64,000 nt of DNA, taken from assembly GCF_020085105.1 (NCBI RefSeq), contig NC_058046.1:8284675-8348674 (forward strand), written 5' to 3'. A program made the translations under genes and the position numbers. The DNA is from Siniperca chuatsi. Lineage: Eukaryota > Chordata > Actinopteri > Centrarchiformes > Sinipercidae. Positions 10,334 to 12,953 of the stretch are shown piece by piece. Under the pieces are notes generated by a model. The model had not been told where the DNA came from and did not search any database. It saw nothing but the letters and a program-made list of their open reading frames with translations. Numbering within the stretch: position 1 is the first letter of the stretch; each line of letters begins with the position of its first letter.

Positions 10334-12953
10334 CCATCCATCCATCCATCCATCTTCTTCCGCTTATCCGGGGCCGGGTCGCGGGGGCAGCAGTCTAAGC
10401 AGGGACTCCCAGACTTCCTTCGCCCCAGACACTTCCTCCAGCTCCTCCGGGGATCCCGAGGCGTTCCCAGGCCAGCCAAGAGACATAGTCCCTCCAGCGT
10501 GTCCTGGGTCTTCCCGGGGCCGCCCCCGGTGGGACATGCCCAGAACACCTCCCGAGGAGGCGTCCAGGAGGCATCCGGATCAGATGCCCTAGCCACCTCA
10601 GCTGGCTCCTCTCGACGTGGAGGAGCAGCGGCTCTACTCGAGCTCCCCGTGTGACTGAGCTCCTCACCCTATCTCTAAGGGAGCGCCCAGCCACTCGGCG
10701 GAGGAAGCCCATTTCGGCCGCTTGTATCCGCGATCTTGTCCTTTCGGTCACTACCCAAAGCTCATGACCATAGGTGAGGGCAGGAGCGTAGATTGACCGT
10801 AAATCGAGAGCTTTGTCTTTCGACTCAGCTCCTTCTTTACCACAACGGTCCGATACAGCGCCCGCATCACTGCAGACGCTGCACCGATCCGCCTGTCAAT
10901 CTCACGCTCCATCCGTCCCTCACTCGTGAACAAGACCCCGAGATACTTAAACTCCTCCACTTGGGGCAAGGACTCCCCACCCACGCGAAGAGAGCAAACC
11001 ACCTTTTTCCGGTCAAGAACCATGGCCTCAGATTTGGAAGAGCTGATTCTCATCCCAGCTGCTTCACACTCGGCTGCAAACCGTCCCAGTGCATGCTGCA
11101 GGTCCTGGTTTGAAGAAGCCATCAGAACGACATCATCTGCAAACAGCAGAGATGAGATCCTGTGGTTCCCAAACCGGACACCCTCCGGCCCCTGACTGCG
11201 CCTAGAAATTCTGTCCATATAAATTATGAACAGAACCGGTGACAAAGGGCAGCCCTGGCGGAGTCCAACATGCACCGGGAACAGGTCTGACTTACTGCCG
11301 GCAATGCGAACACAGCTCCTGCTCCGGTTATACAGGGACCGGACAGCCCTTAGCAAAGGGCCCCGGACCCCATACTCCCAGAGCACTCCCCACAAAGCGC
11401 CCGGGGCACACGGTCGAATGCCTTCTCCAGATCCACAAAGCACATGTGGACTGGTTGGGCAAACTCCCATGAACCCTCGAGCACCCGATGGAGAGTATAG
11501 AGCTGGTCCAGTGTTCCACGACCGGGGGACGAAAACCACTCTGCTCCTCCTGAATCCGAGGTTCGACTATCGGACGAATTCTCCTCTCCAGTACCCTGGA
11601 ATAGACCTTACCGGGAGGCTGAGAAGTGTGATCCCTCTGTGATTGGAACACACCCTCCGGTCCCCCTTCTTATACAGAGGACCACCACCCCGGTCTGCCA
11701 GTCCAGAGGCACTGTCCCAGACCGCCACGCGATGTTGCAGAGACGTGTCAGCCAAGACAGTCCCACAACATCCAGAGACTTAAGATACTCAGGACGGATC
11801 TCATCCACCCCGAAGCCTTGCCACCAAGGAGCTTGCCAACAACCTCAGTGACTTCGGCCAGGGTGATGGATGAGTCCGCCTCCGGTCCCCAGCCTCCGCT
11901 TCCTCTTCGGAAGACGTGACAGCGGGATTGAGGAGATCCTCAAAGTATTCCTTCCACCGTCCGACAACATCCCCAGTCGAGGTCAACAGCTCTCCACCCG
12001 CACCGTACAAGGTGTTGGTGAAGAACTGCTTCCCCCTCCTGAGCCGTCGGACGGTTTGCCAGAATTTCTTTGAGGCCGACCGATAGTCCTCCTCCATGGC
12101 CTCTCCGAACCTCTCCCAGTCCTGAGTTTTTGCCTCTGTGACCGCACGGGCTGCAGCACGCTTAGACTGCCGGTACCTGTCAGCTGCCTCGGGAGTCCCA
12201 CGAGCCAACAAGGCCCGATAGGACTCCTTCTTCAGCCTGACGGCATCCCTTACTTCCGGCGTCCACCACCGTGTTCGGGATTGCCGCGCGACAGGCACCA
12301 GAAACCTTGCGACCACAGCTACGAGCCGCCGATCGACAATGGAGGTGGAAAACATGGTCCACTCGGACTCAATGTCCCCAACCTCCCCCGGGATCTGGGA
12401 GAAGCTCTCCCGGAGGTGTGAGTTGTAGACCCTGCTGACAGAGGGCTCCGCCAGACCTCCCGCACAAGCTCAGGCTCCTTCCCCCCCAGCGAAGTGACAT
12501 TCCATGTCCCTAGAGCCAGTTTCTGTGTCCGGAGATCTGGTCGCCGAAGCCCCTGCCTTCGACTGCCGCCCAGATCTCTCTGCACCGGCCCCTTACGGAT
12601 CCTCCTGCGGGTGGTGGGTCCACGGGAGGACGGCCCCACGTCGCTCCTTCGGGCTGTGCCCGGCCGGGCCCCGTGGGGAAAGGCCCGGCCACCAGGCGCT
12701 CGCCGTCGGGCACCCACCCCAGGCCTGGCTCCAGGGTGGGGCCCCGGTAGCGCCAATCCGGGCGACGTAACTGGCCTTGATTTTAAATAATCCATAAGGG
12801 TCTTCTGAACCGCTCTTGGTCTGACCCGTCACCCTGGACCTGTTTGCCATGGGTGACCCTACCAGGGGCATACAGCCCCAGGCAACATAGCTCCCAGGGT
12901 CATTCGGGTACTCAAACCCCTCCACCACGTTAAGGTGGCGGTTCAAGGAGGGG
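10334..12953 (-). mobile_element. RTE/Rex3-like LINE, 5' end present, endonuclease region largely deleted
   Basis: On the minus strand this 2620-bp element begins at 12953 with CCCCTCC and ends at 10334 in a (GATG)n-type tail, the 3' end described for fish Rex3/RTE elements. The coding part shows reverse transcriptase motifs: VDLEKAFDRVP (around 11430), LRQGCPLSPVLF (around 11260), the catalytic FADDVVL (around 11130) and YLGVLF, then the C-terminal RWLGHLIRMP block. These lie in different frames, so the RT is broken by several frameshifts. After the leader, EPELVREVWR runs almost directly into the region before the RT (frame-shifted remnant of ESEWTMFSTSIVDRR). Most of the usual N-terminal endonuclease is therefore missing. 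A perfect 12-bp target-site duplication flanks it. It cannot move by itself. Confidence 0.9.
12805..12953 (-). ncRNA. Candidate HDV-like self-cleaving ribozyme at the LINE 5' end
   Basis: Read on the minus strand from the first base of the element: P1 CCCCTCC (12953-12947) pairs perfectly with GGAGGGG (12923-12917). TTGAACC (12946-12940) is a P2 5' strand. P3 is GCCAC (12939-12935) with GTGGT (12928-12924), closed by a six-base loop. P3 abuts P1 directly, as in HDV-like double pseudoknots. A P4 stem TGACCCT/AGGGTCA (12902-12896 with 12860-12854) follows, then GGCAAACA, which resembles the joining segment holding the catalytic cytosine. The P2 3' strand is either GGTCCA (12840-12835, one mismatch) or GGTTCAG (12811-12805, full pairing). 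HDV-like ribozymes at the 5' ends of RTE and R2 elements are established; assigning one here is my inference, without folding software. Confidence 0.45.

What the first reader, a model, noticed from the sequence alone, without database searches (positions are those of the whole stretch)
12805..12953. HDV-like ribozyme fold begins exactly at the 5' terminus of the RTE-type LINE
Seen: the target-site duplication fixes the element's first base at 12953 (minus strand). From that base a seven-pair P1 (CCCCTCC with GGAGGGG) encloses a candidate P2 5' strand and a P3 hairpin that abuts P1; then come a P4-like stem, GGCAAACA, and two possible P2 3' strands. Known: HDV-like ribozymes cleave just upstream of P1, and several RTE and R2 LINEs use them to release their 5' ends. 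Inference: this fish family carries one, and the coincidence of P1 with the transposon boundary is hard to explain otherwise.
Basis: partly seen in the sequence, partly recalled or inferred. Interest (0 to 1): 0.75.

Follow-up and report, generated by a model that had tools for sequence, protein, structure and literature searches.

The report
Self-cleaving RNA starting fish Rex3 retrotransposons
A fish jumping gene of the Rex3 type begins, base for base, with an RNA fold laid out like the hepatitis-delta-type self-cutting ribozyme, which would let the element cut its own copies free of longer transcripts; other jumping genes are known to do this, so it is probably a new example rather than a new kind of thing.

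Summary
The element (window 12953-10334, minus strand) is a Rex3-type LINE: RT domain, tail GCG(GAA)2(GATG)n, and a 12-nt target-site duplication fixing base 1 at 12953. From base 1 the RNA can form a complete HDV-like double pseudoknot. GGCAAACA lies inside P4. Of 8000 shuffles of the first 170 nt, one gives the layout anywhere, none with P2 of 8 bp or more or at base 1 (descriptor written afterwards). 42 of 50 distinct young copies start at base 1. An older family in the same genome keeps P1, P3, L3 and J4/2 by majority and changes P2 13-144 from C-G to U-A and P4 45-130 from A-U to G-C. Against: no family-level double-sided change in P1 or P3, weak P1.1, no Rfam match, mixed shuffle controls, cleavage untested. 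HDV-like ribozymes at RTE 5' ends are known: most likely a new member of a known kind.

The parts
10334..12953 (-). Rex3-type LINE copy; reading frames broken
   Evidence: RVT_1 E 3.4e-19 in 10751-11539; several separate ORFs; Rex3 tail signature
12954..12965 (-). target-site duplication, 5' copy (ACTTTGGTTTAT)
10322..10333 (-). target-site duplication, 3' copy
10334..10363 (-). Rex3 tail GCG(GAA)2(GATG)5G, directly after TAA at 10364-10366
   Evidence: sequence; Rex3 tail described in PMC6274825 (passages seen)
12947..12953 (-). P1 5' strand CCCCTCC; predicted cleavage just 5' of 12953
   Evidence: 42 of 50 distinct young copies start at this base
12917..12923 (-). P1 3' strand GGAGGGG
12938..12944 (-). 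P2 5' strand GAACCGC (bases 10-16; U8 and U9 can extend it in the young families)
   Evidence: covariation
12807..12813 (-). P2 3' strand GCGGTTC (bases 141-147)
   Evidence: covariation
12934..12936 (-). P3 5' strand ACC (bases 18-20)
   Evidence: plain folding prefers the register GCCAC/GUGGU, bases 15-19/26-30, at two lengths
12927..12933 (-). L3 TTAACGT (bases 21-27); C25 and G26 are the candidates for the conserved L3 C and G
12924..12926 (-). P3 3' strand GGT (bases 28-30), abutting the P1 3' strand
12822..12914 (-). P4 domain (bases 40-132), long imperfect stem; contains GGCAAACA at 12841-12848
   Evidence: folds; P4 45-130 A-U to G-C
12814..12819 (-). J4/2 CCAAGA (bases 135-140); candidate catalytic C at 12819

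Best explanation
The first about 149 nt of this fish Rex3 LINE form an HDV-like self-cleaving ribozyme: P1 1-7/31-37, P2 10-16/141-147, P3 18-20/28-30, long P4, and catalytic C135 in J4/2. Transcripts that begin upstream of an inserted copy would cut themselves just before base 1, giving new cDNAs the same complete 5' end. Shown here: the sequence, the 5' end shared by many copies, the layout, and compensatory changes between two families. Inferred: folding, catalysis, the cleavage site and its role in release from co-transcripts (and possibly in translation initiation, as proposed for other LINEs).
For: Fixed 5' end: a 12-nt duplication abuts base 1, a second case has a 13-nt duplication abutting base 1 (L142), and 42 of 50 distinct young copies start at base 1 behind differing flanks. 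Layout rare by chance: 0 of 8000 shuffles at base 1. Of 47 unrelated loci of the viral collection sharing the P3/L3 core letters, none pairs P1 at 7 of 7 (one at 6 of 7) and three others pair P2 at 6 of 7; none does both. Compensatory changes: P2 13-144 is C-G in the young families, while T13 stands in 17 of 22 and A144 in 20 of 20 old copies, both together in 15 of 20; P4 45-130 A-U becomes G-C in 9 of 14. In A2 (16 distinct rows) 86.5% of cells pair versus 35-52% in slid controls, and 11 cells are changed on both sides versus 0-4 slid; 2 of 500 shuffles reach 11. C135, A137 and A138 are unchanged in the 50 young copies while 136 is C or T, and stand in 19 of 20, 18 of 19 and 18 of 19 old copies. 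Precedent: cleavage at the element's 5' end is reported for ribozymes of R4, Dong, L1-clade and RTE elements (PMC3774820, passages).
Against: No Rfam HDV model at gathering score or at E up to 10. No family-level double-sided change in P1 or P3; the P1 family-level change is a one-sided wobble (C2 to U opposite G36), with one double-changed cell in a single decayed copy. Across all 22 old loci P1 pairs are standard in only 11-19 of 19-21 cells each, and P2 15-142 in 8 of 19, perhaps decay. P1.1 is weak: at most A23-U38, with U22 opposite U39. Base 1 is C, where known HDV-like ribozymes usually have G (recall). In one search the percentage paired is reached by 34 of 500 shuffles, pairs changed on both sides by 93 of 500 and further pair types by 476 of 500. 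Of six lengths folded without pseudoknots, two show the P1 half, one the P2 half and three other folds. P4 register differs between families. One genome only, no cleavage data.
Confidence: 0.84

Rival explanations
1. The fold is a descendant of an HDV-like ribozyme that no longer cleaves and is kept as a 5' RNA structure for translation, for binding of the LINE protein or for template jumping; the exact 5' end comes from an internal promoter that starts transcription at base 1.
For: P1.1 is weak and base 1 is C; an exact 5' end is also what an internal promoter would give; for R2 the ribozyme is thought to help translation too (PMC8256844, passages).
Against: C135 and the CNAA string are kept in two families; a purely structural element would not need P1 to start exactly at base 1.
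Confidence: 0.1
2. The P1-P3 hairpin is real but the P2 pseudoknot is coincidence: the 5' UTR just has a stable hairpin and GC-rich stems, with no ribozyme.
For: P1 and P3 are a plain hairpin; folding energy is only moderately low (z -2.66); the descriptor was written after the fact; only two family-level double changes, one genome; mixed shuffle controls.
Against: P2 of 7-9 bp lies beside P3 and right behind CNAAGA; 13 and 144 are the only majority differences inside the 7 core P2 pairs apart from the variable pair 15-142, and they are partners; 0 of 8000 shuffles at base 1.
Confidence: 0.05
3. The structure is an artefact of the alignment or of decayed copies.
For: Old copies are 68-85% identical to the query over the matched part, were aligned automatically, and the 12 in A2 were picked by eye.
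Against: The layout is read directly from 42 young copies with complete P1; slid controls fall to 35-52% paired; the P2 13-144 change is also seen over all 22 loci.
Confidence: 0.01

Closest known systems
HDV-like ribozymes at the 5' end of RTE, R4, Dong, Baggins and L1Tc LINEs (Ruminski et al. 2011 and others, as described in PMC3774820 and PMC11620745, passages seen)
   Same: Ribozyme at the very 5' end of a non-LTR element, P1 starting at base 1, nested double pseudoknot, C in J4/2
   Different: Here in a Rex3-type element of a fish genome, with a 93-nt P4 domain, A-U instead of C-G in P1.1 and C1-G37 as the first pair (letters compared partly from recall); activity untested. Ruminski 2011 is not held, so whether it already lists a fish RTE is unknown
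R2 ribozymes
   Same: P1 6-7 bp, P2 of at least 5 bp, variable P4, 0-2 nt between P1 and P4, catalytic C and conserved C and G in L3 (PMC3774820, sections seen)
   Different: R2 is rDNA-specific and often uses 28S sequence in P1; this element is dispersed and keeps P1 wholly inside itself
Rex3 retrotransposon
   Same: GCG(GAA)2(GATG)n tail right after the stop codon (PMC6274825, passages seen); endonuclease and reverse transcriptase
   Different: The word ribozyme does not occur in the main text of that review

Membership tests
HDV-like ribozyme | Order P1-P2-P3-L3-P3'-P1'-P4-J4/2-P2' (nested double pseudoknot) | tested here: met
HDV-like ribozyme | P1 about 7 bp, starting at the cleavage site; P1 3' strand abutting P3 | tested here: met
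   7 of 7 pairs, base 1 = element 5' end; that cleavage happens there is not shown
HDV-like ribozyme | P2 of at least 5 bp, supported by compensatory change | tested here: met
   7-9 bp in the young families; 13-144 C-G to U-A between families
HDV-like ribozyme | Catalytic C in J4/2 followed by N-A-A (CNAA: recall) | tested here: met
   C135 19 of 20, A137 18 of 19, A138 18 of 19 in old copies; no change at these three sites in 50 young copies, 136 varies
HDV-like ribozyme | Conserved C and G in L3 | tested here: met
   C25, G26 unchanged in 50 young copies; 16 and 15 of 22 old copies, the losses mostly T for C (5) and A for G (6), as CpG decay would give
HDV-like ribozyme | P1.1, pairs between L3 and the bases after P1' | tested here: inconclusive
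   At most A23-U38; U22 opposite U39; P1.1 disruptions are also marked among R2 elements (PMC3774820, Figure 6 legend)
HDV-like ribozyme | Compensatory change in P1 or P3 (extra test, not part of the definition) | tested here: not met
   Family level: only a one-sided wobble in P1, none in P3; one double-changed P1 cell in one decayed copy
HDV-like ribozyme | Match to an Rfam HDV model (extra test, not part of the definition) | tested here: not met
   None at gathering or at E up to 10; such models hold no pseudoknot
HDV-like ribozyme | Self-cleavage, dependent on C135 | not testable with these tools
   Needs in vitro transcription
Rex3 | Tail GCG(GAA)2(GATG)n with the stop codon 3 nt before GAA | tested here: met
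   against PMC6274825; that review prints GATG in a figure legend and GATC in its text
Rex3 | Endonuclease and reverse transcriptase domains | tested here: met
   RVT_1 in the window copy; Exo_endo_phos in a sister copy, L003
RTE clade | RT phylogeny places it in RTE | not tested

The most novel reading that the evidence does not exclude
Rex3, a widespread teleost retrotransposon, carries throughout teleosts an HDV-like ribozyme with a departing core (C1-G37 first pair, a single A-U in place of the C-G P1.1), a branch of the family that searches tuned to the canonical core would miss.
Probability: 0.4. Interest if true: 0.55.

Novelty: new member of a known kind. Interest (0 to 1): 0.42.

Why it matters
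It would give Rex3 a concrete route for making its 5' end without its own promoter, and would extend LINE ribozymes to a common fish element. Its unusual P1.1 and first pair would test how far the HDV core can bend.

Tried and rejected
The Rfam matches PyrR205 and WT1-AS_2 were set aside as chance, below gathering. The pattern search of bacterial genomes gave 3 loci without the fold's other parts on reading. Viral contigs gave 0 loci for the strict pattern, no confirmed relative by protein (7 stretches matched a pattern), 47 loci for the core pattern (used as controls) and 5 for a P2' pattern (not examined). The pattern with base 33 of P1' changed gave 1 locus (L039), whose P1 does not pair. 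The pattern AAGAGCGATTCANNAGACC gave 0; its spacing was wrong by one base for the old family. A first alignment had minus-strand loci unflipped and was redone. Alignment A1 had one row on the wrong strand and was replaced by A2. A2 holds 12 of the 22 old-family loci, picked by eye for recognisable ends; L047, which was in A1, was dropped for its poor 5' part, so A2 leans towards pairing; one search counts all 22. Further searches meant to enlarge the P1 test did not complete. Searches were waits only.

Full report
What the element is. The window lies in an unnamed 719-Mb genome, by its content a teleost (inference). On the minus strand 12953-10334 is a LINE copy with a reverse transcriptase domain, split reading frames, and the tail TAA-GCG-(GAA)2-(GATG)5G. 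A review gives GCG(GAA)2(GATG)n as the Rex3 tail, with the stop codon 3 nt before the first GAA (PMC6274825, passages seen; its figure legend prints GATG, its text GATC). A sister copy, L003, encodes an Exo_endo_phos endonuclease. A 12-nt duplication abuts both ends. I therefore call it Rex3; no tree was built, and its placing in RTE is recall.

The 5' end. A search with the first 254 nt listed 40 places (316 candidates, 40 scored), 19 of them, the window's own included, identical over the full length. Flanks upstream of base 1 differ from copy to copy. Of the 58 young-family loci fetched, 50 are distinct: 42 begin at base 1 (21 with CCCCTCC, 21 with CTCCTCC), 2 apparently at base 2, 3 at base 4 and 3 at base 8 (start points read from its table). 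An earlier count gave 32 of 38 at base 1. Of 20 copies fetched at greater length, the exact tail signature was found in one, L142, which has a 13-nt duplication abutting base 1; the 3' ends of the others were not seen. The first query favoured complete 5' ends; the second began at base 8 and so did not select for bases 1-7.

The fold. Numbering from base 1 = 12953: P1 1-7/31-37; P2 10-16/141-147, extendable to 8-16/141-149 in the young families; P3 18-20/28-30; L3 21-27; P4 about 40-132; J4/2 135-140. Folding without pseudoknots at six lengths gives the P1 half at two (164, 200), the P2 half at one (150) and other folds at three (140, 146, 254). In the P1 half the hairpin takes the register 15-19/26-30 instead of my P3, so the P3 register is a choice made on the HDV layout. 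Folding energy is moderately below shuffles (z -2.66, 2 of 200 as good).

Chance. A descriptor (7-bp P1, abutting 3-bp P3, L3 of 6-9, P2 of at least 6 bp beside P3, CNAA just before P2') finds 3 places in the window; only this one has P2 of 8 bp or more. 48 shuffled windows have 1.67 on average, 7 in all with P2 of 8 bp or more. In 8000 shuffles of the 170-nt 5' end: 1 with any, 0 with P2 of 8 bp or more, 0 at base 1. I wrote the descriptor after seeing the fold. Among 47 unrelated loci of the viral collection that share the P3/L3 letters, P1 pairs 7 of 7 in none and 6 of 7 in one; P2 pairs 6 of 7 in three others; none has both.

Comparative test. Young copies differ from one another chiefly at base 2 (C or T, a wobble with G36), 72, 81 and 136 (C or T in J4/2). 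A search with L043 found an old, decayed family (43 matches, 68-85% identity apart from itself). Across 22 loci its majority keeps P1, P3, L3 (with T for A at 24) and J4/2. It changes P2 pair 13-144 from C-G to U-A (T13 in 17 of 22, A144 in 20 of 20, both in 15 of 20) and P4 pair 45-130 from A-U to G-C (G-C in 9 of 14; 3 of 14 are unpaired A-C). Pair 15-142 is standard in only 8 of 19, and P1 pairs in 11-19 of 19-21 cells each, as decay would give. On A2 (17 rows, 16 distinct): 86.5% of cells pair (slid controls 35-52%), 11 cells are changed on both sides (slid 0-4; 2 of 500 shuffles reach it), covariation score 0.163 (slid 0.066-0.098; 8 of 500 shuffles reach it). Other measures of the same call are weak: percentage paired is reached by 34 of 500 shuffles, pairs changed on both sides (5; slid 0-4) by 93 of 500, further pair types by 476 of 500. 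P1 and P3 gave no family-level double change; one P1 cell in a single decayed copy is changed on both sides.

Comparison with the known. R2 ribozymes have P1 of 6-7 bp, P2 of at least 5 bp, variable P4, J1/4 of 0-2 nt, the catalytic C and four other fixed positions; conserved L3 sites include a C and a G (PMC3774820, sections 12, 15, 16, 18 and 19 seen). The same paper says that cleavage at the element's 5' junction is known from R4, Dong, L1-clade and RTE elements (passage); PMC11620745 also lists RTEs (passage). The primary RTE paper is not held. Searches for Rex3 with HDV-like ribozyme (0 papers), Rex3 with ribozyme (4 papers, unrelated by title), HDV-like with ribozyme and teleost (1 paper, on R2, listing only) and a broader one (1,625 papers at three of five terms, 8 listed, none on this by title) found no report of this one; they cover only the open library. 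Departures from the usual core, judged partly from recall, are C as base 1 and a weak A-U P1.1.

Verdict. A fish Rex3 family begins with what is very probably an HDV-like ribozyme. The kind is known for RTE LINEs; I found no report of the instance in the searched library; catalysis is inferred.

Noticed in passing
L016, L017, L020 (start at base 8); L027, L028, L035 (start at base 4): In the second young set (24 of 30 loci at base 1) the other six 5' ends fall at only two places, base 4 and base 8 (the first base after the P1 5' strand); reverse transcriptase stopping at P1 or microhomology with the flank could cause it.
   Followed up: partly
L043/L044 and relatives L045-L071: An old, strongly decayed Rex3-like family with the same 5' fold but a different P2 is scattered through the genome.
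   Followed up: yes
window 10334-12953: This copy is about 2.6 kb with split frames, while in 19 of 20 young sister copies the exact tail signature was not found within about 3.25 kb of base 1, so this copy may be internally shortened although its first 254 nt are identical to 18 other listed copies.
   Followed up: partly
L039 around 1501: A lone locus with the same P2/P3/L3 letters as the old family (GAGAATCGTCACCTTATCGTGGTGG) but a P1' that does not pair; probably a decayed copy.
   Followed up: partly
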